A DNA stretch of 64,000 nucleotides from Gammaproteobacteria bacterium (GTDB taxonomy: Bacteria > Pseudomonadota > Gammaproteobacteria > Pseudomonadales > Pseudohongiellaceae). A model generated the notes under the pieces. It searched no databases. It saw only the letters and a program-made list of their open reading frames with translations, and was not told the origin of the DNA. This document shows, piece after piece, positions 20,808-30,847 of the stretch. The translations under genes and the position numbers were made by a program. The DNA lies in assembly GCA_947457195.1 (NCBI GenBank), contig CANGUU010000002.1, positions 1-64,000 on the forward strand, read 5' to 3'. The number at the start of each line of letters is the position of its first letter. Positions within the stretch are counted from its first letter, which is position 1.

Positions 20808-21278
20808 CTAGCGTGTGCTGAGCAGCCAGGCATAGTCGATGCGGTCAGCGGCTTGAGCAGACAGCAAATGCGAACTGGGCCGGATTCCCACCCTGCCCAG
20901 ATCCAGTCGGTCTGCGTCCCAGCATGACTGTACGGTGGCATCTGTTGCCATGCGGCCGTCGCTGTGTTGAATCATGGCGAAGGTCAATTGATCCAGTTGC
21001 TTGGATGCAAGATCGAAGAAGCGCCCGTTCAGCGAGGCGGCAAATTCCGAGGCGCGGTGGCCGTGCCGCGGGTCGTGCCAGTCGTTGTGGCGTTGGCTGT
21101 CATGCAGCAGCGCGAACAGTTCCACTACCAGGAGATCAGCGCCGCGTACGCGCGCCAGGTGTCGCCCATGGTGCCGTACTCGTGCCCAGTGCGGCGCTCC
21201 ATGGATGCCGCGCCAGTCAAGCCGGAACTGGGAACGCAGCAGCTGTATGAGGCCGGGCTTGTCAATCAATTGGCTCAT
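20808..21278 (-). CDS. HD-domain phosphohydrolase-like protein
   Basis: The 156-residue protein contains GIHGAPHWARVRHHG, then LLVVELFALLHDSQRHNDWHDPRHGHRASEFA. The spaced His, the HD pair in LLHDS and a later Asp in CWDADRLDLGRVG match the metal site of HD-superfamily phosphohydrolases. Start ATG 21278 is chosen because GGAG lies 8 bases upstream; a longer frame reaches 21350. It is the last gene of the leftward operon, 120 bases after the vWA gene. The substrate is unknown. Confidence 0.75.
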   Translation of the reverse strand: MSQLIDKPGLIQLLRSQFRLDWRGIHGAPHWARVRHHGRHLARVRGADLLVVELFALLHDSQRHNDWHDPRHGHRASEFAASLNGRFFDLASKQLDQLTFAMIQHSDGRMATDATVQSCWDADRLDLGRVGIRPSSHLLSAQAADRIDYAWLLSTR

Positions 21279-21398
21279 GCGGGCTCCATGGGGGCGCACA
21301 TTTACCATGCGCAACTTCGCCGAAGAGTAGCATCCCGTACGGGGATCCATCCCCCTGCATGGTCATCTGGAATGCCTGCGCGGCGCAGTTCGTCCTGT

Positions 21399-22691
21399 TT
21401 ACCCTTCGGTCCGCCGTCCCTCCGTCATCTTGCGTCGCAGGAAGGCCTGCTCCTCGGCATCCTGCCGCTGGGAGAACAGCGGTTCTTCGATGCTGGAGAG
21501 GCGAGTCTGCATGCGCGAGGACTTGTAGAGCATTTCCTTGGACATGCGCTGTTCGTCGCGCTCGCGCATGAGCTGCCGGGTGAAGGCGATGGAGGCAGCC
21601 ACCCAGGGTTCGTGCCGGCCCAGCAACTCCAACTCGCCGAGCAGCGCCTCTACGTGGTGCCAGTCGCCCCCAAGGGCCGCGTCGCGAATGCGTAGCTGCA
21701 GGTCGGCCGCGGCGATTTCGTTCATGCGCCGCGCGACCAGTTCGTGCATGGGCAGTGCCGCGTAGTCGAGCGGCGACACTTCCGGCAGCGTCAGGCTGGC
21801 GCTAAACAGTTGCTGCGTACCTTGGGCATCGGTGGCGCGTACCTGCACCGCGAGTACCGTGCCATGCTCGCGCTGGGCGCGCAGCGCCTGCCGCAGCGGC
21901 ATGCGCAGCAAGGCCCAGCACTCCGACCCCAGTGCCACCGCCGGCAGGCGCCAGCCGTGTTCCGAGCGTGCGTAGGCGTTGAGCAGTGTCAGGTCGGCTG
22001 GCCCGTTGCTGATTTGCAGGTCCACGTTGCGCCACTGCAGTTGCGAATACAGGCCGATCTCGGCGTCGAAGGTTTCCGCCAGATCGATGGCGCGCTCGCC
22101 GTAGTGCGCCGACCCGCGCCCGGCCTTGGCGATGGTAGTCATCAGCGTCTCGTTGAAGTCGGTGCCGAGCCCCACGGTGGTGGTGGTCACGCCGGCATCG
22201 GCAAGGGCGGCAACGTGCGCGCTGATGCGGACCGGATCGGTGAGCCCCACGTTGGCGTTTCCGTCGGACAGCAGGATGATGTGGCACGCCGCTTCCCGAC
22301 CGGTGAGCGGGGCCAGCATCTCGGCGGCCCGCAGCCAGCCTGCGTGGAGGTTGGTGCTGCCGCCGGCGCGAAGTCGCGGCAGTATGGCCGCCAGCAGAGG
22401 GCTGTTGTGCTCCACCGCTCCGAGCGGCAGTACCGTGTCTACCTGGTCGTCGTACTGCACCACGCCGACGTGGTCGGTGGGGTGCAGGCGCCCCATCAGG
22501 TCACTCAGGCAGCGCTTGGCTTCTTCCAGCTTGCTGCCCTCCATCGAGCCTGAGCGATCGATCACCAGCACAAGGTTGAGTGGTGTGCGGCGGAAGCCCG
22601 GCTCGGGTTCGGACTGCAGCCGCACCAGCAGGTGAAAGTCTCCGGCTGTATCGCACAGCGCCGGCCGAACGGGATTGATCACGATTTTCAT
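21399..22691 (-). CDS. von Willebrand factor A (vWA) domain protein
   Basis: This 430-residue protein has a vWA domain near residues 35-215. LVLVIDRSGSMEGSK is the DxSxS metal-ion-dependent adhesion site, GGSTNL supplies the conserved Thr and ILLSDGNAN the conserved Asp. The C-terminal half is beta-rich and then helical, ending in a charged tail. No signal peptide is seen, so it should act in the cytoplasm. Its ATG overlaps the stop of the helix-turn-helix gene by 4 bases (ATGA). vWA proteins commonly pair with AAA+ ATPases, here possibly the MoxR gene of the rightward operon. Confidence 0.85.
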   Translation of the reverse strand: MKIVINPVRPALCDTAGDFHLLVRLQSEPEPGFRRTPLNLVLVIDRSGSMEGSKLEEAKRCLSDLMGRLHPTDHVGVVQYDDQVDTVLPLGAVEHNSPLLAAILPRLRAGGSTNLHAGWLRAAEMLAPLTGREAACHIILLSDGNANVGLTDPVRISAHVAALADAGVTTTTVGLGTDFNETLMTTIAKAGRGSAHYGERAIDLAETFDAEIGLYSQLQWRNVDLQISNGPADLTLLNAYARSEHGWRLPAVALGSECWALLRMPLRQALRAQREHGTVLAVQVRATDAQGTQQLFSASLTLPEVSPLDYAALPMHELVARRMNEIAAADLQLRIRDAALGGDWHHVEALLGELELLGRHEPWVAASIAFTRQLMRERDEQRMSKEMLYKSSRMQTRLSSIEEPLFSQRQDAEEQAFLRRKMTEGRRTEG

Positions 22692-23680
22692 GCGGCACCT
22701 TCTTTTGTTTGGGGAGTCGGGGGAGGCAGGTCTTGCAGCGTGTCAAGACGGGATTCGAGGGTTGCCAGTCTGGCGTTCACTTCACTGTGGAAGCGGTCCA
22801 GCTGCGAGCCGAGGTCCTGCTGGAAACGTCGCTGCAGTGCAAGCATTTCGCCAAAGCCCTTGGTCTGTTCCTCGAGGAAGCCGCGCACATCGTGCTGCTG
22901 CTTGTTGAACAGCCGCCCAAAGATCTGCTCCAGCATGTCTTTCTGCTTGTAGGCTTCTTCGAACAGGTACCGCTGCTGGTCCATCTGCTTTTCGATCATT
23001 TGCAGCGGCTTTTGCAGCATGTGGTCGAAACGCCGGGTGGCATCGTCCATGAGCTTCGCGAGCGAGCCAACCGCTTGCTTGAGCGCCAGCGGATCGGCGT
23101 GCTGTGCCTGTAACTGGGAGCCAACGTCACGGATGGCGTCGTCTACCATGGCGTGTACCTGGCGCTGCAGGCGGGTAATCTGGTCGTGCACCCGCTCCTC
23201 CATCTCGCGCATTTCGTGCATCACGTCGACCATGCCCATGCCGGTGGCCCGGCTGTGCATGGGGCGGGGCGGTGGGGAACGGCCCGCAACCCGGGCCGTG
23301 GCGTTGCTGTCCGTGTGTTCGCTGCGGAAAGCCGCGACCAGCAATTCCGCTTCGCTGGTGGGCCCGGGCTTTTCGAGGTAGGCGGTGAGGATGTCGGTGG
23401 TGACGGCCGAGGTGAAACCGGCGATCTTGGTGAGCGAGTAACCCTCGGCCAGCAGCCGCCTGGCCGCCACGAACTGCACCAGGTGGCGGAACCCGTAGAG
23501 GGCATCGCGCCCCTCGCGCGAGGGCTTGTCCACCACGCCCATCGACACATAGTGGCGCAAAAGCCGTTCGTTGCCTTCTTGATGCAACTGCAGCGTCTTG
23601 GCCAGTTCCTGCGCCTTGAGGATCAGCGCGTCGGCAGAGCCCTGAAAATCACTGCGCAGCCGGTCCATTACCTTGAACAT
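22688..23680 (-). CDS. MerR-like helix-turn-helix protein with long coiled coil
   Basis: From ATG 23680 the product has 330 residues. Residues about 38-90 (GNERLLRHYVSMGVVDKPSREG...YSLTKIAGF) look like a MerR-type winged helix that reads a 'Y/F-G-F-R-H' wing. After a Pro/Arg-rich linker, residues about 150-310 are long amphipathic helices rich in Gln, Met, Glu and Arg, which predict a coiled coil. The frame stays open further upstream, but a good promoter and palindrome lie over that stretch, so the ATG at 23680 (or 23668) is preferred. It may be an autoregulator and an assembly scaffold for the overlapping vWA gene. Confidence 0.7.
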   Translation of the reverse strand: MFKVMDRLRSDFQGSADALILKAQELAKTLQLHQEGNERLLRHYVSMGVVDKPSREGRDALYGFRHLVQFVAARRLLAEGYSLTKIAGFTSAVTTDILTAYLEKPGPTSEAELLVAAFRSEHTDSNATARVAGRSPPPRPMHSRATGMGMVDVMHEMREMEERVHDQITRLQRQVHAMVDDAIRDVGSQLQAQHADPLALKQAVGSLAKLMDDATRRFDHMLQKPLQMIEKQMDQQRYLFEEAYKQKDMLEQIFGRLFNKQQHDVRGFLEEQTKGFGEMLALQRRFQQDLGSQLDRFHSEVNARLATLESRLDTLQDLPPPTPQTKEGAA

Positions 23681-23727
23681 GGGGAGACCCGAGGGGATTC
23701 GGCCCGCGGCGCGGGCCTTGAAGGTGA

Positions 23728-23770
23728 TTGGCATAGTGCCAGTCTGGATTGTAACTGTCAATATGCCAAT
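23728..23770 (-). promoter_or_regulatory. Leftward promoter with overlapping TGGCA/TGCCA operator
   Basis: On the minus strand TTGACA (23761-23756) and CACTAT (23738-23733) are 17 bases apart and would start RNA near 23726. The palindrome TGGCA-TAG-TGCCA (23729-23741) covers the -10 box, and TATGCCAAT (23762-23770) is the inverse of ATTGGCATA (23727-23735). Three half-sites around one promoter suggest repressor binding, perhaps by the product of the adjacent helix-turn-helix gene. Confidence 0.55.
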
Positions 23771-23851: not shown

Positions 23852-23880
23852 TTGACAGTGTTGAGCAGCCTCACTACCGT
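23852..23880 (+). promoter_or_regulatory. Rightward island promoter
   Basis: TTGACA (23852-23857), a perfect -35 box, is followed after 17 bases by TACCGT (23875-23880). The predicted start near 23887 falls exactly at the beginning of the first riboswitch element, which supports the call. Confidence 0.6.
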
Positions 23881-23888
23881 TCACGCGT

Positions 23889-23939
23889 CAGCGCCCATTT
23901 GTCTCAGCTTGCCGGCGCTTTATAAATCGAGCTAAAGAG
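23889..23939 (+). promoter_or_regulatory. SAM-II-like riboswitch A (transcriptional)
   Basis: P1 is GCGCC (23891-23895) with GGCGC (23914-23918). Loop 1 reads CATTTGTCTCAGCTTGCC and the 3' segment reads TATAAATCGAGCTAAAG. These match the SAM-II core as I recall it (GATTTAA...TTGC, P1, ATAAATG, AGCTAAA). GCTT in loop 1 can pair with GAGC in the tail to form the pseudoknot. It begins at the predicted transcription start and is followed at once by an intrinsic terminator, so SAM binding would be expected to affect termination. It is the most diverged of the three copies. Confidence 0.68.
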
Positions 23940-23940
23940 A

Positions 23941-23998
23941 GTTTCTCCTGAAACCCGCTTTGGCCAAGCCGAGCGGGTTTTTTGCGCCCGGAGAAACA
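23941..23998 (+). terminator. Intrinsic terminator/attenuator between riboswitches A and B
   Basis: AAACCCGCT (23951-23959) pairs with AGCGGGTTT (23972-23980) around a 12-base loop, followed by a T6 run (23978-23983). An outer helix, GTTTCTCC (23941-23948) with GGAGAAAC (23990-23997), could form around it. The hairpin lies between aptamers A and B, upstream of every gene in the rightward set, so it is positioned as an attenuator and not as the end of a gene. Confidence 0.78.
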
Positions 23999-24052
23999 GC
24001 CGCCGATTTAATCTTCAACTTGCGGGCGGTCTAGAAATGCAGCTAAAGCGGT
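23999..24052 (+). promoter_or_regulatory. SAM-II riboswitch B (translational)
   Basis: P1 is CCGCC (24000-24004) with GGCGG (24025-24029). Loop 1 is GATTTAATCTTCAACTTGC and the tail is TCTAGAAATGCAGCTAAAG. This is a near-exact match to the SAM-II (SAM_alpha) core GATTTAA-n-TTGC / AAATG-AGCTAAA. TTGC can pair with GCAG for the pseudoknot. It is 58 bases upstream of the gene at 24110, whose Shine-Dalgarno sequence can be masked by the next hairpin. SAM-V has a similar core, so the class boundary is not certain. Confidence 0.8.
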
Positions 24053-24058
24053 GCCCCA

Positions 24059-24101
24059 GCTCCTCGTGAGTCGGCACTGTCCGACAAACGTGTACAGGAG
24101 C
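24059..24101 (+). promoter_or_regulatory. RBS-masking hairpin after riboswitch B
   Basis: GCTCCT (24059-24064) is complementary to AGGAGC (24096-24101), which contains the ribosome binding site for ATG 24110. Between them GTCGG (24070-24074) and CCGAC (24081-24085) form an inner hairpin. Together they give a translational expression platform. Confidence 0.6.
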
Positions 24102-24109
24102 CCACCGTC

Positions 24110-24706
24110 ATGACGGCCGAAGACCAAGCAATTCTTTTAAGGCAGGCACTGAAGGGCAAAAAGGCTGCCCTCAAGCAGCTCTTTGCCGACGCGGAGCAGG
24201 CGCTGGCGCACGAGGACTTCGCGTCCGCGGCCGCGCTTTTCAAGGAATCCGCGATCTGCTACCGGATCGCGCTGTTTCGTGAGCGAGCCGCGGCAGAAGA
24301 GCTGGAGCAGCGTGTGAGCACGCTGGAAACCAAGCTCGCCTTCAAGACCAGACTCCTTGCAAAGCCAGCGGCGTACTTCCAGATCCACTGCCCACCAGAC
24401 GCGGATCTCACGTTCGAAAGCATGGCCCGGGCCTGGCATCACTTGACCTGGGACGAAGACCTGGCGGCGGCCGCCCTGTGCGTGGTCGAACTCTGGCACG
24501 CACAGGGTGAGCCGTTCTCATCCCCCGGGGGCTCAGAGACAAGACGCCTCATCAGCTCTGTGCAGGGCATCCTTAAACAGGCGCGGGAGCAACAGGGGAC
24601 CTTGCCACACGCGCGCCCGAGCGAGACCTGGCTGCTGCTAACGCCCATCGTGCATGCCATGGCCGCGTTGCTGAGCCCGAGAAACCACGGAGACCCCAAT
24701 GCCTGA
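24110..24706 (+). CDS. Uncharacterised riboswitch-controlled protein 1
   Basis: I do not recognise this 198-residue protein. Its N-terminal 100 residues are alanine-rich amphipathic helices (ALKQLFADAEQALAHEDFASAAALFKES, then a heptad-like LEQRVSTLETKLAF), reminiscent of a TPR/MIT-type helical hairpin. The C-terminal half has WHHLTWDEDLAAAALCVVELWHAQ and more helix. No signal peptide or membrane segment is present. ATG 24110 has CAGGAG nine bases upstream. It is the first gene under tandem riboswitches A and B, and its stop overlaps the next gene by 8 bases. Confidence 0.72.
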   Translation: MTAEDQAILLRQALKGKKAALKQLFADAEQALAHEDFASAAALFKESAICYRIALFRERAAAEELEQRVSTLETKLAFKTRLLAKPAAYFQIHCPPDADLTFESMARAWHHLTWDEDLAAAALCVVELWHAQGEPFSSPGGSETRRLISSVQGILKQAREQQGTLPHARPSETWLLLTPIVHAMAALLSPRNHGDPNA

Positions 24707-25169
24707 CTTCAACAAGAAAACCCTGACCAACGTCGCGTGCAGAAAACTGCGTGCCTCGAAGGATGACGGATGGGAATTCATCTACGCCACCCCCGGCGCT
24801 GCTTCCTACTCCTGCTGCTATATAGACAGTCTCCCGGAGTTCGACGGCATGCTCGACTGCGTCGACACGGTGTGGAGTGCTGAAAAAATCAGCGAAATCG
24901 AATCCAGCGGACGGGACCTCACTGATGACGAGTTCCGCCAGTGGCAAAAGATCAGGGCCATGCAAATAGCAAAAGACTGCGATGAGTCTGCCTCAACCGT
25001 CTGGATCACACCGATTGAGATCCGCGGAGAAGTCGCTGGATACGCGGTCTTCACCATGAGCAATGGCGCTGCCGCCGAGGACTCGCCACAGGTGTGGGAT
25101 GTTTTTGCAACACACACAGAGGCACTGAATGACCTGCTCGGTGAGGCGGCGGTCTGGCCGGTGGATTGA
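24699..25169 (+). CDS. Uncharacterised riboswitch-controlled protein 2
   Basis: This 156-residue acidic protein is not recognised. It has a mixed alpha/beta look: WEFIYATPGAASYSCCYIDSLPEFDGMLDCV, then STVWITPIEIRGEVAGYAVFTMSNG and a C-terminal helix TEALNDLLGEAAVWPVD. It has three cysteines in the first third (SCCYID, LDCV) but no obvious metal motif. Its ATG lies inside the end of the preceding gene (8-base overlap), so the pair should be translated together and may form a complex. Confidence 0.72.
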   Translation: MPDFNKKTLTNVACRKLRASKDDGWEFIYATPGAASYSCCYIDSLPEFDGMLDCVDTVWSAEKISEIESSGRDLTDDEFRQWQKIRAMQIAKDCDESASTVWITPIEIRGEVAGYAVFTMSNGAAAEDSPQVWDVFATHTEALNDLLGEAAVWPVD

Positions 25170-25215
25170 ATACAGCAACCCCAGGTTCCAGCCAGCCATT
25201 GAGCGGAGATCAGCG

Positions 25216-25389
25216 ATGAGTAAAAGCAACGTCCTGCAGCTTTCCGCAGCCCTGAAGCGCCGCAAGCGTGTGTTTCATCTCGGTTCGCTTGGCTACTCGG
25301 GTGCCCCCGGCTTGAGCTGGTGCACCGAGTACTGGGTAGCGAAAGGCCACGACACGCAATTGAACACACACAGGAGGGTACGACATTGA
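25216..25389 (+). CDS. Small basic ORF (57 aa)
   Basis: A short frame starting MSKSNVLQLSAALKRRKRVF with GGAGA seven bases before the ATG. It is rich in Lys/Arg/His and has no family that I recognise. It fills the space between the second unknown gene and riboswitch C, and may be a real small protein or a leader peptide. The ribosome binding site is the main support. Confidence 0.4.
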   Translation: MSKSNVLQLSAALKRRKRVFHLGSLGYSGAPGLSWCTEYWVAKGHDTQLNTHRRVRH

Positions 25390-25419
25390 TCTGAGCCCTC
25401 CACCACGGGTCGCTGACCC

Positions 25420-25473
25420 ATCGCCGATTTAAGTGACAACTTGCAGGGCGATTCACAAGTGCTGCTAAAGCGT
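25420..25473 (+). promoter_or_regulatory. SAM-II riboswitch C upstream of the MoxR operon
   Basis: P1 is TCGCC (25421-25425) with GGCGA (25447-25451). Loop 1 is GATTTAAGTGACAACTTGCA and the tail is TTCACAAGTGCTGCTAAAGCG. GCAG in loop 1 can pair with CTGC in the tail as the pseudoknot helix. It shares GATTTAA, CAACTTGC and GCTAAAGCG with copy B, while the variable bases differ, as expected of homologous RNA and not of a recent duplication. It lies directly before the hairpin that holds the ribosome binding site of the MoxR gene. Confidence 0.78.
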
Positions 25474-25475
25474 TG

Positions 25476-25537
25476 GTGTTGCCTCTCCGTCCAGGCTTCG
25501 CCGCGCCTGCGGAGAGACTGGACGACAGGAGCAACAC
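25476..25537 (+). promoter_or_regulatory. Hairpin enclosing the MoxR-gene ribosome binding site
   Basis: GTGTTGC (25476-25482) pairs with GCAACAC (25531-25537), the seven bases just before ATG 25538. Further in, CGTCCAG (25488-25494) pairs with CTGGACG (25518-25524). AGGAG (25527-25531) sits between the two helices. The structure would block initiation and begins three bases after aptamer C, so it is a translational expression platform. Confidence 0.65.
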
Positions 25538-26944
25538 ATGAAAAAAGAATCTACCTCTCGCCCCGGCAGTTGGCTCGAGCCGCTGGGGCTGATCGGCCTG
25601 CAATCGATCGAGGCGCCATTGCTGGCGGCGCTGCTCACCGAGCAACCTCTTCTGCTGATTGGCCCGCATGGCACTGCCAAGAGTTTGCTGCTAAGCCGTG
25701 TCGCCTCGGCGCTCGGACTGACCTTCCGGCACTACAACGCCAGCCTGCTGAACTTCGACGATTTGGTGGGCTTTCCGGTCCCGACGGCGGACCGGACGTT
25801 GGAATATCTCAAGACTCCCGCCGCCATCTGGGGCGCGGGTGCGGTGATCTTTGATGAGATCAGTCGCTGTCGGCCTGACATCCAGAACAAGCTCTTTCCG
25901 ATCATCCACGAGCGCAAGGTTCAGGGTCTTGATATCGATGGGCTGCGCTACCGCTGGGCGGCCATGAACCCGCCCACCGTTGGCGCCGATGAGGGCGACT
26001 ATGCAGGCTCGGAACCGCTGGACCGCGCGCTGGCCGACCGGTTTGCGTTCGTCGTCCAAATGCCCGCCTGGGCGGAGTTCTCACCAGCGGAAAAACGCGC
26101 AGTAATCCGCTCGCAGACGCGGACGTTCGGTCCACAGGACGCTGCCCGCCTCGCTGACTCGCTGGCTCTGGCCCGTGCCTTCCTGAAAGCGGTAGAGCAG
26201 GACTGTGCAGACGCCACGGCCGATTACGTCTTCGCGCTGATGCCGCTGCTGTCGCAGGCGAATATCGAGCTGAGTCCTCGCCGTGCCAACTTGCTGTATC
26301 AAGCGGTGTTGGCCGTTCATGCCAGCGTTCTGGCCTTGCAGCCCGGGGGCGCGTTTGCCGATAGCGCCCTGCTGGCGCTGCGGTCATGTCTGCCCCAGCG
26401 TGCCGAGGGCCTGCCGGTGGCGGAGGTCAAGTTGCTGGCCGCGCATCGGGAGGCAATACGTGCGGTCAGCCTTAGTCCACAAGACCCCCTTCGCGCGATC
26501 CTGGCCACCGCTGAGCCGCTGGAGCGCTTCAAGTTGGCGGTACGCGCGACCCGCCTGCCCAAAGGCGAGTTCTCGCGGGTAATAGCAGATGCATTGGCGC
26601 AGATGCCAACCGGCGCGCGCGAGGCGGCCATCGTGCACCTCTTTGAAACCGGTGCTGTGGGGCGGCTCAACGCGGCCGTGGCCTCGCAGATTGGGGAACA
26701 GTATCGGGACATCGCCACGCCCGCTGAATTCAGTGAAACGCTGCACGCGAGCCAAGGCCGTTACCAGGCGTGGGGAAAGCTCAAGGACCTGCTGGCCCGT
26801 TTGGATCCAGCCGATCCGCGCGCCCATCTTCAGGCCAATGCCCTCGCATCGCTCTTTGCAAAGAAGGAGCTACAGACTCCGGAGGAAGCCGAGCGCGCCT
26901 TTCATGCCTTCAGCCAGACCGACACTCTGGTGAGGTGCCCATGA
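25538..26944 (+). CDS. MoxR-family AAA+ ATPase
   Basis: This 468-residue ATPase has Walker A GPHGTAKS (42-49), Walker B AVIFDEISR (102-110), the sensor-1 segment AAMNPP (141-146) and an arginine-finger region LDRALADRF (161-169). These and the helical insert place it in the MoxR/RavA branch. MoxR ATPases remodel protein complexes and normally act with a vWA partner. The partner here is most likely the metallopeptidase-vWA protein two genes downstream. The C-terminal 200 residues are helical and not recognised. The gene is preceded by riboswitch C and shares an ATGA overlap with the next gene. Confidence 0.92.
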   Translation: MKKESTSRPGSWLEPLGLIGLQSIEAPLLAALLTEQPLLLIGPHGTAKSLLLSRVASALGLTFRHYNASLLNFDDLVGFPVPTADRTLEYLKTPAAIWGAGAVIFDEISRCRPDIQNKLFPIIHERKVQGLDIDGLRYRWAAMNPPTVGADEGDYAGSEPLDRALADRFAFVVQMPAWAEFSPAEKRAVIRSQTRTFGPQDAARLADSLALARAFLKAVEQDCADATADYVFALMPLLSQANIELSPRRANLLYQAVLAVHASVLALQPGGAFADSALLALRSCLPQRAEGLPVAEVKLLAAHREAIRAVSLSPQDPLRAILATAEPLERFKLAVRATRLPKGEFSRVIADALAQMPTGAREAAIVHLFETGAVGRLNAAVASQIGEQYRDIATPAEFSETLHASQGRYQAWGKLKDLLARLDPADPRAHLQANALASLFAKKELQTPEEAERAFHAFSQTDTLVRCP

Positions 26945-27486
26945 GCCGAGTGCGTGCCGATGATTCCTCACCGCTGCTGCACAACATGAGCGCCCCACCC
27001 AAGAGCGTGGTGAGGTACAGCGGGTTGTCCGGATTGGTTCAGCAAACTGGTCCCGGTGGATCCGGGGTGACCTCGCTGCGGTACAGCAATATCAACCAAC
27101 ACGGGTCTTGTGTGCGTTTTGAATTGGCGGCACACCTGAAGCTTGACAGTCCCGCCGACATCCTCGCCAGTCTGGAGCTACTGCAAGAGGGGGCTTCCGC
27201 CGATTCGGCGTCTCGGCATCTGGTGCAACTCATCAACCAGCGTGCGGCCGCGCTGCCGCTGCCAGAAGGGTGTGCGGTGGTCAAAAGCCTGCCGTCGCAC
27301 GAGATGCTCTGGCCCGATCCGCTGGCGGCGCTGGCCGTGTTGACCAAATGTACGGACACCGTCTGGTTGCGCGCCAAGACGCCCACGCTCAGCAGGCTTT
27401 TGAGTCAGAGGTGTGTCTCGCTTCTGATACCCCCCGGCCTCATTGACGCACTCGGAAAAGCCCAATCTGGAAAATTCCAATCATGA
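26941..27486 (+). CDS. Uncharacterised MoxR-operon protein
   Basis: The 181-residue protein is not recognised. It starts at ATG 26941, overlapping the MoxR stop by 4 bases, and its own stop overlaps the next start in the same way. The sequence is alpha/beta: SLRYSNINQHGSCVRFELAAHLKLDSPADILASLELLQ and later LPSHEMLWPDPLAALAVLTKCTDTVWLRAKTPTLSRLL. No catalytic motif or membrane segment is visible. The tight coupling argues that it is a stoichiometric subunit or adaptor of the ATPase-vWA assembly. Confidence 0.78.
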   Translation: MSRVRADDSSPLLHNMSAPPKSVVRYSGLSGLVQQTGPGGSGVTSLRYSNINQHGSCVRFELAAHLKLDSPADILASLELLQEGASADSASRHLVQLINQRAAALPLPEGCAVVKSLPSHEMLWPDPLAALAVLTKCTDTVWLRAKTPTLSRLLSQRCVSLLIPPGLIDALGKAQSGKFQS

Positions 27487-28988
27487 ATTCATGGCATGTA
27501 ACCAAGCGAAAGCACGCTGACTCTGTTGCTCAAGTCTCCCCCACAGGCAAAGGTTCAATCACTTCGTATGGGGTGATCCAAACACCCGAAGCTGCTGATG
27601 GTGCGCCGCTCTCCAGCAGCCAGTCACTGGCCGAGGCTGTTTTGGATGCTTTCCCCAGCGGGTCTTATGCGATGACTGGGTTGTTGCGGCTGCTCGACAT
27701 CGTAGCCACAAGTCGCGTACCCACCGCTGCGGTGGAGTGTCGCGCGCAACCCCGCCTGCTCATCAACCCGCACTTTGTGGCCCAACACGCTGACTCCCCG
27801 GAAAAGCTGCTGATGCTGGTGATGCACGAGCTCCATCACGTGCTGCTCGGGCATACCACGCTATTTCCCCGGCTGACATGGGAGCAGAACTTTGTGTTCG
27901 ACGCCGTCATCAACGGCCTCGTTTGCCGCATGTTTCCCGACCGGGCGTTCACATCGTTCTTTACGGACTATTACCGTGAAGACCGGTTCCCCGACTGTCT
28001 GCTGCGACCGCCCAGCGGTTGGCCTGCGGCTGGCTTTTCAAATTCCCCGGTCTTGGATCTGCTTGACCCCACACTGCAAAAGCAGGTGCAGGACGTACAC
28101 GCTGCCCTGTACTCGGAGGCGGGCGCCAGCTACCACGAGGTGCACGAACTGTTGCCGCGCCTGCTGGTGAAGACTGATGCCAGTGGAGTGGGTGAGGTGC
28201 CTTTACTGGGTGGACACGACCCGGGCGATGGTCAGCACACCGATCTGCAACGCGGCTCGCCAGTGCTGTTCGACCTGGTGCGTGAATTGGTCGAGCAGTG
28301 GCCGCAACCCCCCGACCCGATACGTGGCCGCTCATTGGCTGATGTGCTCAATGAGTCCACGGTGTCCGCGCCGCGAGTACGGCCGCCGCGTAGCGTGCTT
28401 CGGGCGTTGATCCGTAAGGTAGCGGGTGTCAAGGGGACGAGCCGCTTGCCGCAGATCTCGGTCGCCCACACGTGCATTCAAAGCCCAGTTCCTGTCTGGT
28501 CGCGGCGATCGAGCGTGTTGCACGCCATGGGCGTGCCTAATCTGCTGCACCCTGCTGCTGTCCCTTGGAAGAAGCGGCGACAAAGCGGTGCGCTTGTCCA
28601 TGTCTACCTCGATGTTTCGGGAAGCATGGAGGGGGTCTTGCAGCCACTCTATGCCGCCGCACGGGATTGCGAGGAATTCCTCCATCCCAAGATCCACCTG
28701 TTTTCTACCAAGGTGGTGGACATCACCCGCGCTGAGCTTCGCGCAGGGCGTTGTAGCAGTACCGGCGGCACCAGCATTGAGGCGGTCGCTGAACACATGG
28801 CTGCCCATGACATCCGGCGTGTCTTGATCGTCACCGATGGATGGGTTGGCTCCCCCAAGGGGCTGCACCGACGAACACTTGAGAATGCCGAGGTGGCTGT
28901 GGCCTACCTGGGGCATCAAACAAACCGCAACGACCTTGCGGGTCTGGCCAACTACACCGATACCCTTTGCATTGGAGATGCACCATGA
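27483..28988 (+). CDS. HExxH metallopeptidase-like vWA protein (DUF2201 type)
   Basis: The 501-residue protein joins two modules. The N-terminal part has LMLVMHELHHVLLGH (HELHH at 115-119), a zinc-metallopeptidase-type HExxH helix. The C-terminal part is a vWA domain with VYLDVSGSMEG (D377-S379-S381), TGGTS near 427 and IVTDGW (D451), so the metal site is complete. This architecture matches the DUF2201/vWA-like predicted metallopeptidases that occur beside MoxR ATPases. The middle section has Pro/Arg-rich linkers. ATGA overlaps at both ends tie it to its neighbours. Protease activity is inferred only. Confidence 0.87.
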   Translation: MNSWHVTKRKHADSVAQVSPTGKGSITSYGVIQTPEAADGAPLSSSQSLAEAVLDAFPSGSYAMTGLLRLLDIVATSRVPTAAVECRAQPRLLINPHFVAQHADSPEKLLMLVMHELHHVLLGHTTLFPRLTWEQNFVFDAVINGLVCRMFPDRAFTSFFTDYYREDRFPDCLLRPPSGWPAAGFSNSPVLDLLDPTLQKQVQDVHAALYSEAGASYHEVHELLPRLLVKTDASGVGEVPLLGGHDPGDGQHTDLQRGSPVLFDLVRELVEQWPQPPDPIRGRSLADVLNESTVSAPRVRPPRSVLRALIRKVAGVKGTSRLPQISVAHTCIQSPVPVWSRRSSVLHAMGVPNLLHPAAVPWKKRRQSGALVHVYLDVSGSMEGVLQPLYAAARDCEEFLHPKIHLFSTKVVDITRAELRAGRCSSTGGTSIEAVAEHMAAHDIRRVLIVTDGWVGSPKGLHRRTLENAEVAVAYLGHQTNRNDLAGLANYTDTLCIGDAP

Positions 28989-30115
28989 CCCAGAAACTCT
29001 ACCCGGCAGAATTCATTTTTCCCGGCCACCCGGACAAGCTCAGCGATGCCATCGCCGATGCGTTGGTGGAGCAAGCCTGGCAGCGCGACCCGCGCGCCCT
29101 GGTAGGCGTCGAGGTGGCAGTGCACCGCGACCATGTCTACATCACCGGACGTGTGGCGTGCCCCGGCGCCGCAGATATCGATGTCACTGCTCTGGTTCAG
29201 GAGGTCTATCGCACCGCCGGTTACGACGAACACTGGTACCCGGCCCCGCAGCAGGTTTGTGTTGTCTCAAATCTGTGCCTCGGCCCCCTGGAGCCGGGCG
29301 AGGCTGAGTTTCGTGAGCTCTCGGATGATCAGGCGATCTGTATCGGTTATGCCAACCACCTCGAAGCCACCAACCACCTGCCGGTGGAGCAATGGCTGGT
29401 GGGGGCGGTGGCAAAGCGGCTATACCGTTTGCGTGCCGAGCAGCCAGCGCTGAACCTGGGACCCGATGGCAAGGTGCTCGTGATAGTGGAGGAGCACACC
29501 GACGCGGCGGGTGTGCCCATGGCATGGTGGCTGCGCGATTTCAGCTGTTCGCTTCAGCAGCGCATTCATGCCGACGAGGTTGCCCTGCATCGCGCAGTGA
29601 GGCTGGCCTTGCAGCAAGTACTGGTGGACGCATCCAAGGCACTGCCCGGTTTTTCTGCTGCATTGCCAGACCATCTCTCGGTCAATGGCGCCGGGGACTT
29701 CGAGGTGGGTGGGCCTGAGGGCGACAATGGCCTCTCCGGTAAGAAGCTTGTGGTTGATGCCTACGGCCCCCGCGTTCCGATCGGGGGTGGCGCCTGGTCT
29801 GGTAAGGATTTTTTCAAAGCCGATCGTGCCGGCGGCCTGCATGCCCGGCGTGTGGCGAAGATGCTCGTTCGGCTAGGGCTGACTCACGAGGCGACCGTCA
29901 CGTTGGCGTGGACTCCAGGTGACCGCAGCGCCCGGGTAGTCAGCGTGGTGGGCAGTGGTAGCTACCAGGCTCGACTGAAGGAGGCCGCCTCGCTGTTCGA
30001 TCTCAGCTTGCTGGTGAGTGGCACTGCGTTCAACCCGGGCGGGCTCATTGAGGTGGCTCGGTGGGGACATTTCTCCAGCGCCGCGTTGCCCTGGGAGAAA
30101 GTCAAAAAGCTGTAG
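28985..30115 (+). CDS. Divergent S-adenosylmethionine synthetase (MetK paralogue)
   Basis: This 376-residue protein keeps the core of methionine adenosyltransferase: GHPDKLSDAIADAL (14-27), SDDQ (113-116), GPDGK (159-163), GGPEGDNGLSGKKLVVDAYG (242-261), GGGAWSGKDFFKADR (267-281) and the WGHFSS..LPWEK tail. By my alignment, E. coli His14, Asp118, Lys165, Lys245, Lys265 and Lys269 are kept. The residue equal to Glu55 is Arg (TGRV) and Arg244 is Lys. It is far from a housekeeping MetK in most other positions. It would make SAM, or a related product, inside an operon controlled by SAM riboswitches. Its ATG overlaps the vWA stop. Confidence 0.88.
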   Translation: MTQKLYPAEFIFPGHPDKLSDAIADALVEQAWQRDPRALVGVEVAVHRDHVYITGRVACPGAADIDVTALVQEVYRTAGYDEHWYPAPQQVCVVSNLCLGPLEPGEAEFRELSDDQAICIGYANHLEATNHLPVEQWLVGAVAKRLYRLRAEQPALNLGPDGKVLVIVEEHTDAAGVPMAWWLRDFSCSLQQRIHADEVALHRAVRLALQQVLVDASKALPGFSAALPDHLSVNGAGDFEVGGPEGDNGLSGKKLVVDAYGPRVPIGGGAWSGKDFFKADRAGGLHARRVAKMLVRLGLTHEATVTLAWTPGDRSARVVSVVGSGSYQARLKEAASLFDLSLLVSGTAFNPGGLIEVARWGHFSSAALPWEKVKKL

Positions 30116-30259: not shown

Positions 30260-30691
30260 GTGACACGAGAGATTTCAAAGCGCTCTGCAATGGTGGTGCC
30301 ACAGGTAGATCCTTTGGTCTCCAAAAATGGCGGAGATGATTTAAATAAGCGACGTATTCTTGCCACGTTTCCCGGTGGGTGGAACGGTGCAGGTGGTATG
30401 GTGTTGTGGTTCAACCTATCGCTTCATCGTCAAGCAGCGGACTGGTATGTGAATAGGTATTTTCACCAATATAGTGTTTGGCCAATTGGCAAACATGAGT
30501 TCACTGTTAGTTATGGGGTTGGAGAAGGGTTTGATATCAAGACACCAATCGGTACGAACTCAGGGCAGAGGTTGATATCTATGTGTTTCGAGGCACTGGA
30601 TGTTGGTGGCGCAGACTACGAAGAGGTGATCAGCTCCGACTCTCTTTTGTCGTATGTGGTGAACATCGATAAAAAGGGTAATCCCCCCTAA
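30260..30691 (+). CDS. Hypothetical protein at the right island margin
   Basis: The 143-residue protein starts at GTG 30260 with GGAAGG upstream. The DNA is clearly lower in G+C than the metK-like gene before it. The protein is aromatic-rich (GGMVLWFNLSLHRQAADWYVNRYFHQYSVWP) with no family that I recognise. Its last codons (KGNPP) lie within a GGTAATCCCCCC repeat, so its end may have been created by element DNA. The 144 bases between it and the metK-like gene hold no supported gene. Confidence 0.5.
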   Translation: MTREISKRSAMVVPQVDPLVSKNGGDDLNKRRILATFPGGWNGAGGMVLWFNLSLHRQAADWYVNRYFHQYSVWPIGKHEFTVSYGVGEGFDIKTPIGTNSGQRLISMCFEALDVGGADYEEVISSDSLLSYVVNIDKKGNPP

Positions 30692-30718
30692 AAACGGTAA
30701 TCCCCCCAAAAGTACCCC
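30677..30718. repeat. GGTAATCCCCCC and GTACCCCC repeats at the right island end
   Basis: GGTAATCCCCCC occurs at 30677-30688 and 30696-30707 (19-base period), followed by GTACCCCC at 30712-30718. The last matches the pair near the left end. They are candidates for integrase arm sites. Confidence 0.5.
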
Positions 30719-30832: not shown

Positions 30833-30847
30833 TGGTAGCGATGGGTG
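30833..30847. repeat. Right attachment-site repeat (attR), 3' end of tRNA-Met
   Basis: TGGTAGCGATGGGTG is identical to 20346-20360. It covers the CCA end, discriminator base, acceptor strand and the first T-stem bases of tRNA-Met. Confidence 0.8.

What the first reader, a model, noticed from the sequence alone, without database searches (positions are those of the whole stretch)
23852..30115. A SAM-riboswitch-controlled MoxR-vWA operon that carries its own SAM synthetase
One island-borne gene set combines three SAM-II-like riboswitches, a MoxR AAA+ ATPase, an HExxH-vWA protein, three unknown proteins and a divergent MetK. I know of MoxR-vWA pairs in predicted conflict systems, and of SAM-II riboswitches ahead of methionine genes. 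I know of no described system that joins them. The RNA senses the product of an enzyme encoded in the same operon, which gives a feedback loop. Since SAM-II elements normally switch genes off when SAM is bound, the system should be expressed when SAM is scarce.
Basis: partly seen in the sequence, partly recalled or inferred. Interest (0 to 1): 0.95.

Follow-up and report, generated by a model that had tools for sequence, protein, structure and literature searches.

The report
SAM-riboswitch-controlled MoxR operon with MetK paralogue
A mobile set of four co-evolving bacterial genes (an ATP-driven MoxR protein, its partner, an unknown protein and an altered relative of the enzyme that makes the methyl donor SAM) sits behind RNA switches of types known to sense SAM, apparently an undescribed response to SAM shortage found in many kinds of bacteria.

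Summary
The window carries three SAM-II-type aptamers (23880-23949, 23989-24060, 25410-25482) and a MoxR, X, HExxH-vWA, MetK-like operon with 4-nt gene overlaps, in a 10.5-kb block missing from two same-genus genomes. In the window Rfam finds only sub-cut-off SAM-II hits. Relatives settle it: the gene set recurs in nine phyla by submitters' titles, and 38 of 78 loci with at least 350 nt upstream have an Rfam SAM riboswitch above cut-off upstream of MoxR: SAM-I, SAM-I/IV or SAM-II. Three of four Anaerolineae relatives lack MetK; none of the four shows a riboswitch. The four proteins co-evolve (r 0.88-0.95). The MetK-like protein keeps ATP and triphosphate residues, but its methionine site is rebuilt (Glu70 to Arg in 51 of 60 rows; Gln113 loop replaced), so 'SAM synthetase' is unproven. 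Inference: a SAM-shortage-induced MoxR-vWA machine with a specialised MetK paralogue. I found no description in an open-access library.

The parts
23880..23949 (+). SAM-II-type aptamer 1
   Evidence: Rfam RF00521 25.6 bits sub-cut-off; R1 51.0 bits (in training set); covarying P1
23950..23984 (+). intrinsic terminator after aptamer 1
   Evidence: fold -22.4 kcal/mol, z -1.9, 8 of 200 shuffles as stable; terminator scan; the same arrangement in L025 905-975
23989..24060 (+). SAM-II-type aptamer 2
   Evidence: R1 69.1 bits (in training set); Rfam 15.1 bits
24048..24108 (+). hairpin that pairs the Shine-Dalgarno region of P1
   Evidence: fold -26.2 kcal/mol, z -2.6, 1 of 200 shuffles as stable
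24110..24706 (+). P1, 198 aa, no family above cut-off
24699..25169 (+). P2, 156 aa, no family above cut-off
25410..25482 (+). SAM-II-type aptamer 3, directly before MoxR
   Evidence: R1 81.3 bits (in training set); counterparts just before MoxR in other loci
25476..25537 (+). hairpin that pairs the ribosome-site/start-proximal region of MoxR
   Evidence: fold -37.6 kcal/mol, z -3.3, 1 of 200 shuffles as stable
25538..26944 (+). MoxR AAA+ ATPase, 468 aa
   Evidence: AAA_5 E 2e-10; Walker A/B, sensor and arginine residues kept in 83 of 83 or 84 of 84 rows
26941..27486 (+). X, 181 aa, unknown alpha/beta protein
   Evidence: no Pfam family; AF2 pLDDT 82.9; no clear PDB fold match
27483..28988 (+). 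HExxH domain + vWA (CoxE-type), 501 aa
   Evidence: VWA_CoxE 32.4 bits, cut-off 26.4; H115 E116 H119 H124 and MIDAS conserved; vWA fold
28985..30115 (+). MetK-like paralogue, 376 aa
   Evidence: TIGR01034 168.1 bits, cut-off 309.4; separate long branch; altered methionine site
22688..23761 (-). divergent MerR-like HTH protein of the same block, recurrent near the operon elsewhere
   Evidence: MerR_1 E 1.2e-6; cluster 18 in 5 loci, the window included
21399..22691 (-). second vWA protein of the same block, recurrent near the operon elsewhere
   Evidence: VWA E 2e-23; cluster 12 in 9 loci, two of which (L107, L114) look like J-domain proteins

Best explanation
This is a horizontally moving SAM-shortage module. 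Shown by sequence: a conserved operon MoxR, X, HExxH-vWA and MetK-like lies behind SAM aptamers (one to three per locus where found). In the window the first aptamer is followed by a terminator; the second and third are followed by hairpins that pair the ribosome-binding regions of P1 and MoxR. Inferred: when SAM is plentiful the bound aptamers end transcription early and close the ribosome sites, and when SAM falls both gates open. Inferred: MoxR (ATPase) and the vWA protein (with a zinc-peptidase-like motif) form an ATP-driven remodelling or proteolytic machine, with X as a dedicated adaptor or substrate-facing part. Inferred: the MetK-like protein keeps the ATP and triphosphate chemistry of MAT but handles the sulphur substrate differently, so it is either a specialised SAM synthetase for starvation or a maker of a related sulphonium compound. 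Its product would feed, limit or signal to the machine.
For: SAM control by several RNA classes at the same place: Rfam hits at or above cut-off upstream of MoxR in 38 of 78 loci with at least 350 nt upstream (tallied; for 31 loci only RF01725 and RF00162 were searched). With session models R1 or R2: 62 of 78; of the 32 such loci in neither training set, 16. R2 gave 60 hits in 1.01 Mb on both strands, all on the + strand, 59 of them upstream of MoxR. Of 21 above-cut-off SAM-I/IV hits in 31 genomes, 13 lie in this leader (places mapped by hand; they agree with R2's places) and one more before a second copy of the operon (L137). Positive controls: R1 elements outside the training set end 73 and 72 nt before the matched start of normal metK in G777 and G783. 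Natural contrast: Anaerolineae L107, L112, L114 have no MetK in the DNA seen, L104 is cut by the contig end, and no riboswitch was detected in any of the four. Co-evolution r 0.88-0.95, 0 of 1000 permutations as high. Catalytic residues of MoxR, vWA MIDAS and HExxH conserved. Transcription gate then translation gate.
Against: No ligand binding, expression, complex or enzyme activity is measured. 46 of the 62 model-positive loci supplied training sequences, and the planctomycete R2 hits outside training are weak (E 0.0035-0.044). Sixteen of 78 loci have no R1/R2 hit (nine of 55 with MetK present): ten of these show weaker or variant elements, five of the ten by eye only, and six show none. Five of eight loci with no adjacent MetK still have a SAM element (L031, L032, L078, L084, L102), so MetK and the switch are not strictly tied. 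X has no recognised fold. Most loci are metagenome bins, so organism labels may be wrong.
Confidence: 0.6

Rival explanations
1. Metabolic reading: the MetK-like protein is an ordinary, if divergent, SAM synthetase used as a back-up at low SAM, and MoxR-X-vWA is its dedicated maturation chaperone, as CoxD-CoxE or NorQ-NorD serve their enzymes.
For: MetK-like keeps the residues aligned with His29, Asp31, Glu57, Lys181, Asp258, Lys265, Lys285, Asp291 (58-60 of 60 rows each, the rest gaps) and Lys289 (53 of 60) of human MAT (residue list); SAM-II elements of two related genomes precede normal metK; vWA is CoxE-type and NorD of a NorQD complex is Foldseek rank 4.
Against: Glu70 to Arg (51 of 60), replacement of the Gln113 gating loop and Arg264 to Lys (55 of 60) recur across phyla; a normal MetK over cut-off is present in 24 of 26 genomes; MoxR-vWA also occurs without an adjacent MetK (8 of 78 loci).
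Confidence: 0.25
2. Conflict reading: an anti-phage or anti-plasmid system armed by SAM loss, for example after a phage SAM lyase acts; the MoxR-vWA-peptidase machine is the effector and MetK-like restores or signals SAM status.
For: Patchy and mobile: vWA matches in 3 of 390 genomes of the order, namely the window's own, G171 and a weak 24% match in G192; empty site in two relatives; one copy on a contig of a viral collection; MoxR-vWA couples occur in predicted conflict systems (PMC7159879, passages).
Against: No PADLOC family in seven proteins of the locus; 128 flanking proteins from 21 loci matched 81 PADLOC models, the 25 shown by 1-3 members each (WYL regulators in 3; single methyltransferase and type III restriction hits), with no background rate measured; vWA on none of 72,556 plasmid or 50,697 phage records; three of four Anaerolineae relatives lack MetK and none shows the SAM link.
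Confidence: 0.15
3. The RNA elements are look-alikes and the operon is not SAM-controlled.
For: The window elements miss Rfam's gathering score.
Against: Several SAM riboswitch classes recur at the same position with above-cut-off scores, and P1 covaries.
Confidence: 0.02

Closest known systems
MoxR-vWA-centric ternary conflict systems (VMAP, iSTAND, FtsH, beta-propeller classes; PMC7159879)
   Same: MoxR ATPase plus vWA co-chaperone plus a distinct third component, patchy distribution
   Different: Third component X has no Pfam family; a MetK paralogue is the fourth; SAM riboswitches control it. Term searches inside that paper found no riboswitch, MetK or SAM/AdoMet synthetase; S-adenosylmethionine occurs only in its reference list
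CoxD-CoxE, NorQ-NorD, RavA-ViaA MoxR-vWA chaperone pairs
   Same: MoxR + CoxE-type vWA with complete MIDAS; NorD is a structural neighbour of the vWA model
   Different: N-terminal HExxH motif, partner proteins X and MetK-like, SAM-sensing leader
Tandem SAM-II, SAM-II/SAM-V and SAM-II/SAM-I-IV bi-mechanism riboswitches (PMC9481103)
   Same: First aptamer with terminator, second with ribosome-site control; SAM-II before SAM-I/IV as in L025
   Different: That review (passages) counts the arrangements (44 tandem SAM-II, 7 SAM-II then SAM-I/IV, 2 inverted); the passages seen tie none to a MoxR operon, and the word AAA does not occur in it
Methionine adenosyltransferase MetK (TIGR01034)
   Same: Same sequence family, ATP and triphosphate residues
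   Different: 168 bits against a cut-off of 309; methionine-site residues replaced; separate long branch

Membership tests
SAM-II riboswitch (RF00521) | P1 stem and H-type pseudoknot CUUGC/GCUAAAG | tested here: met
   27 aligned elements: P1 100% of cells paired with 24 double changes; pseudoknot invariant, but the elements were picked by that pattern
SAM-II riboswitch (RF00521) | Rfam gathering score 36 bits for the window elements | tested here: not met
   25.6 and 15.1 bits, third not hit; homologous L034 element 37.1
SAM-II riboswitch (RF00521) | binds SAM and switches expression | not testable with these tools
   needs in-line probing and reporters
MoxR AAA+ ATPase | AAA_5 domain with Walker A, Walker B, sensor 1, arginine finger (motif names recalled) | tested here: met
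   AAA_5 41.3 bits, cut-off 22; K48 83/83, D106 and E107 84/84, N144, R168, R248, R249 84/84
CoxE-type vWA protein | VWA_CoxE domain and complete MIDAS | tested here: met
   32.4 bits, cut-off 26.4; DxSxS 73/73, 73/73, 72/73 and TDG Asp 70/71
DUF2201_N putative metallopeptidase | Pfam PF13203 score and HExxH | tested here: inconclusive
   14.4 bits, cut-off 23.2; HExxH with a further His conserved in 78-79 of 79
MoxR-vWA-beta-propeller ternary system | bpMoxR domain PF20030 above cut-off | tested here: not met
   20.7 bits, cut-off 27; no propeller family among the operon proteins
VMAP, iSTAND or FtsH ternary systems | their specific third component | tested here: inconclusive
   no Pfam hit above cut-off in P1, P2 or X; no profile comparison made
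MetK equivalog TIGR01034 | curated score 309.4 bits | tested here: not met
   168.1 bits
Methionine adenosyltransferase active site | residues contacting methionine main chain: Glu70, Gln113, Asp258 (human numbering) | tested here: not met
   Glu70 position Arg in 51 of 60 rows, Gln113 loop replaced; Asp258 kept in 59 of 60, 1 gap
Known defence systems (PADLOC 2023) | any model hit at E 0.1 in seven proteins | tested here: not met
   0 of 7

The most novel reading that the evidence does not exclude
The MetK paralogue has been repurposed: it transfers adenosine from ATP to a sulphur compound other than methionine, or makes a SAM analogue, and this product is a cofactor or second messenger that sets the activity of a MoxR-X-vWA-peptidase machine. 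The machine is switched on only when SAM is short, sensed independently by whichever SAM riboswitch class each host lineage had. This would be a new SAM-linked signalling or defence axis spread across about nine phyla.
Probability: 0.22. Interest if true: 0.95.

Novelty: new variant of a known kind. Interest (0 to 1): 0.85.

Why it matters
SAM riboswitches are known ahead of sulphur and methionine genes. Here a whole ATP-driven MoxR-vWA machine of unknown purpose is placed under SAM control in many phyla, with different RNA classes at the same leader. That makes the purpose testable: the inducing condition (SAM shortage) is read from the RNA, and one locus (L042) lies in a record titled Limnohabitans sp. 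2KL-51. The rebuilt methionine pocket points to an uncharacterised MAT-family activity. For Rfam, it supplies many below-threshold SAM-II and SAM-I/IV members.

Tried and rejected
Searches with nothing: vWA protein in plasmids and phages and, as a single sequence, in viral contigs; MoxR in plasmids at E 1e-30; one SAM-II and one SAM-I/IV DNA pattern in viral contigs. A two-row vWA and a six-row MoxR alignment found one viral contig. PADLOC on the locus found nothing; PADLOC on 128 flanking proteins (of 148 of at least 150 aa, thinned by hand, all 21 loci kept) gave scattered hits without a control, so a defence-island reading was neither adopted nor excluded. X: no PDB fold match (Foldseek best E 0.59; no chain with Z of 2 or more among 250). 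The vWA model's listed matches span about residues 367-500; its HExxH part was not folded alone. Weak matches G192 (24%) and G745 were not counted as members.

Empty site: of three same-genus stretches compared, two (L130, L131) show it; in the third (L129) only the tRNA side aligned, so it tells nothing of the left side.

Rows dropped: of 88 sequences examined, L113, L115 and L066 (same records as L033, L031, L032) and L024 (no MoxR) were left out, giving 84 distinct loci; six of these have under 350 nt upstream of MoxR. L031 and L052, and L035 and L036, are near-copies counted apart. For the RNA alignment 40 pattern matches were cut by eye to 34 and 27. Housekeeping MetK rows for comparison: 8 of 19 loci passed my script's filter. 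Two of the 60 MetK rows (L046, L084) are housekeeping type by the tree. The 16 loci without an R1/R2 hit: L057, L082, L089, L094, L095, L097-L101, L104, L106, L107, L110, L112, L114. L057 is in the type-B SAM-II alignment; L097, L098, L099 have sub-cut-off SAM-I/IV hits of 31.9, 34.2 and 30.9 bits and L100 one of 37.6; L082, L094, L095, L101 and L106 look like SAM aptamers by eye only. L089, L104, L107, L110, L112 and L114 show none.
Full report
WHAT IS THERE. The window holds a tight gene cluster on the + strand: P1 24110-24706, P2 24699-25169, MoxR 25538-26944, X 26941-27486, HExxH-vWA 27483-28988, MetK-like 28985-30115, the last four with 4-nt overlaps. Pfam sees AAA_5 in MoxR, VWA_CoxE in the vWA protein and S-AdoMet_synt N and C in the last; P1, P2 and X have no family above cut-off. 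NCBIfam gives the MetK-like protein 168.1 bits against a cut-off of 309.4. The genome's own MetK lies elsewhere and is 30% identical.

ISLAND. BLAST of the window against two same-genus genomes shows a LysR-type gene ending about 20300 followed within 150 nt by the tRNA-Met at 30833; in the window 10.5 kb lies between them. A third genome aligned only on the tRNA side. A MerR-like gene of the block is found in 1 of 11 genomes of the genus, the window's own. No integrase was seen among the block's ORFs that I scanned.

RNA IN THE WINDOW. At Rfam's gathering scores the window has only tRNAs. Permissive search gives two sub-threshold SAM_alpha hits (25.6 and 15.1 bits). Aptamer 1 is followed by a terminator (z -1.9, 8 of 200 shuffles as stable); aptamers 2 and 3 by hairpins that pair the ribosome-binding regions of P1 and MoxR (z -2.6 and -3.3, 1 of 200 each).

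RELATIVES. A search of 390 genomes of the order with the vWA protein matched 3: the window's own, G171 and, weakly (24%), G192. G171 carries the whole operon; upstream is SAM_alpha at 32.9 bits, a terminator, then SAM-I/IV at 62.9 bits, well over its cut-off of 41.1. Three genomes of the class (and a weak fourth match, G745) and one IMG/VR contig followed, with SAM-I/IV 74.3 and 65.0 or SAM_alpha 37.1 and 29.0 in the leaders. A scan of 84,980 species genomes with a six-row MoxR alignment gave 217 relatives, of which the best 80 were returned. Annotated by HMM these make 84 distinct loci with those already found, the window included. By submitters' titles the MoxR rows fall in 11 phylum-level groups and the MetK rows in 9; bins and titles may be wrong.

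SAM RIBOSWITCHES RECUR. Rfam scans at gathering score, genome searches with RF01725 and RF00162 alone for 31 loci (positions mapped to loci by hand) and searches place an above-cut-off SAM-I, SAM-I/IV or SAM_alpha hit upstream of MoxR in 38 of 78 loci with at least 350 nt upstream; in L063 and L084 it is more than 1 kb away. I aligned 27 SAM-II elements: P1 pairs in 100% of cells with strong covariation; the pseudoknot is invariant, partly because the elements were picked by it. Model R1 from these, and model R2 from 43 above-cut-off SAM-I-type elements, were run over 85 sources, 1.01 Mb. R1 or R2 hits lie within 3 kb upstream in 62 of 78 loci: 46 of 55 with MetK, 5 of 8 without, 7 of 9 cut by the contig end, 4 of 6 without readable vWA. 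Of the 32 loci that supplied no training sequence, 16 are hit. A plain S-box pattern gives 45 hits in 119,051 nt of leaders against 27 in 1,774,703 nt elsewhere. Nine planctomycete-type leaders carry an S-box-like variant that Rfam does not report at cut-off and R2 finds at 22.6-27.3 bits, E 0.0035-0.044. Three of the four Anaerolineae loci lack an adjacent MetK (the fourth is cut by the contig end) and no SAM element was found in any of the four. In the window's genome R1 at E 1e-4 finds three places, all here; in G777 and G783, R1 elements stand just before normal metK.

PROTEINS. Distances among MoxR, X, vWA and MetK-like correlate at 0.88-0.95 (0 of 1000 permutations as high), so the set moves as a unit. 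MoxR's ATPase residues and the vWA MIDAS and HExxH motifs are kept. Fifty-eight MetK-like rows sit on one branch of length 3.23 with full support, apart from 8 housekeeping MetKs and two housekeeping-type rows. Two structure papers (passages only) name Glu70, Gln113 and Asp258 as the contacts to methionine's main chain and one lists the catalytic set. One of them also reports that Gln113 to Ala keeps 76% of SAM production in human MAT, so loss of that residue alone need not abolish activity. In the MetK-like rows Glu70 is Arg in 51 of 60, the gating loop with Gln113 is replaced, Arg264 is Lys in 55 of 60; the ATP and phosphate residues and Asp258 are kept. In 26 genomes tested, 24 also have a MetK over the cut-off. 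X folds as an alpha/beta protein (pLDDT 82.9) with no PDB match.

HOW IT PROBABLY WORKS. Shown: gene set, conservation, riboswitch classes and positions, predicted terminator and ribosome-site hairpins. From established knowledge: SAM riboswitches lower expression when SAM is bound, as reported for SAM-II in Sinorhizobium, where termination and blocked translation go with a stabilised mRNA (PMC9373788, abstract). Inferred: the operon is made when SAM is short; MoxR and vWA act as an ATP-driven machine; MetK-like supplies SAM or a related compound. Competing readings are a back-up SAM synthetase with its own chaperone, and an anti-phage system triggered by SAM loss.

WHAT IS KNOWN. Tandem SAM-II, SAM-II then SAM-I/IV and the reverse have been counted in a review (PMC9481103, passages) in which the word AAA does not occur. 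Weinberg 2010 (PMC2864571, passages) reports the SAM-I/IV variants mostly from metagenomes, with no MoxR mention. The MoxR-vWA conflict-system paper (PMC7159879, passages) names S-adenosylmethionine only in its references. Searches found no paper that holds MoxR together with SAM riboswitch or SAM-II, MoxR with vWA and riboswitch, or MoxR with DUF2201, and none with three of riboswitch, metK, von Willebrand and AAA ATPase. Three papers and one hold MoxR with SAM synthetase or MetK; I saw only their listings. Only an open-access library was searched.

VERDICT. A real, widespread and apparently undescribed system made of known kinds of parts; regulation by SAM very likely, biochemical purpose open.

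Noticed in passing
window 20808-21350 -, 21399-22691 -, 22688-23761 -: HD-domain-like (named by motif from memory, no Pfam hit), vWA and MerR-like genes of the same block recur near the operon in other loci (clusters 23, 12 and 18: 4, 9 and 5 loci, the window included; two of the 9 look like J-domain proteins), so the mobile unit may be larger than four genes.
   Followed up: partly
L037 367-795, L042 7084-7512, L051 603-1031, L135: DUF3293 proteins (PF11697 tested in L037; the others by BLAST cluster or, for L135, by eye) lie between a SAM-I/IV riboswitch and MoxR, or directly behind a separate SAM-I/IV element (L135): a possibly SAM-regulated family of unknown function.
   Followed up: partly
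L132 (G777:C34:259500-262700): A tandem SAM-I/IV plus SAM-II leader precedes small repeated proteins and an HNH-endonuclease-like protein (PF01844) in the Limnohabitans record; another SAM-linked gene set without a known role.
   Followed up: partly
L138 (G784:C152) and L053, L091, L096 flanks: A metallophosphatase gene (PF00149) follows a SAM-I/IV element in L138; similar-looking genes lie near the operon in the other three (cluster 71, by eye).
   Followed up: no
L137 (G784:C275): The genome behind L060 carries a second copy of the operon with its own SAM-I/IV element.
   Followed up: no
L025 837-966 -, L034 8164-8272 +, L033 3932-4040 -: Rfam family RF02424 (Bp2_287, Burkholderia sRNA) matches, at 25-30 bits against a cut-off of 70, the reverse strand of the SAM-II plus terminator elements; that sRNA family may be a misread SAM-II leader.
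   Followed up: no
L095 7702-7947, L097, L103, L086, L105, L110: A small protein (cluster 11) with a DUF6538 / Arm-DNA-binding-like signal in L105 (E 3e-5, sub-cut-off) sits just before MoxR in Verrucomicrobia and Myxococcota loci.
   Followed up: partly
L073, L074, L075, L077: In four planctomycete-type loci a katG-like gene (named from sequence by eye; cluster 34) lies upstream of the MoxR operon.
   Followed up: no
L024 9037-9129 and 9936-10433: G043 holds MetK-like remnants 68% and 83% identical to L025's without a MoxR or vWA hit in the 18 kb seen, apparently a decayed copy.
   Followed up: no
window 30670-30707: Two 19-nt direct repeats lie head to tail between the block's last gene and the tRNA-Met.
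   Followed up: no
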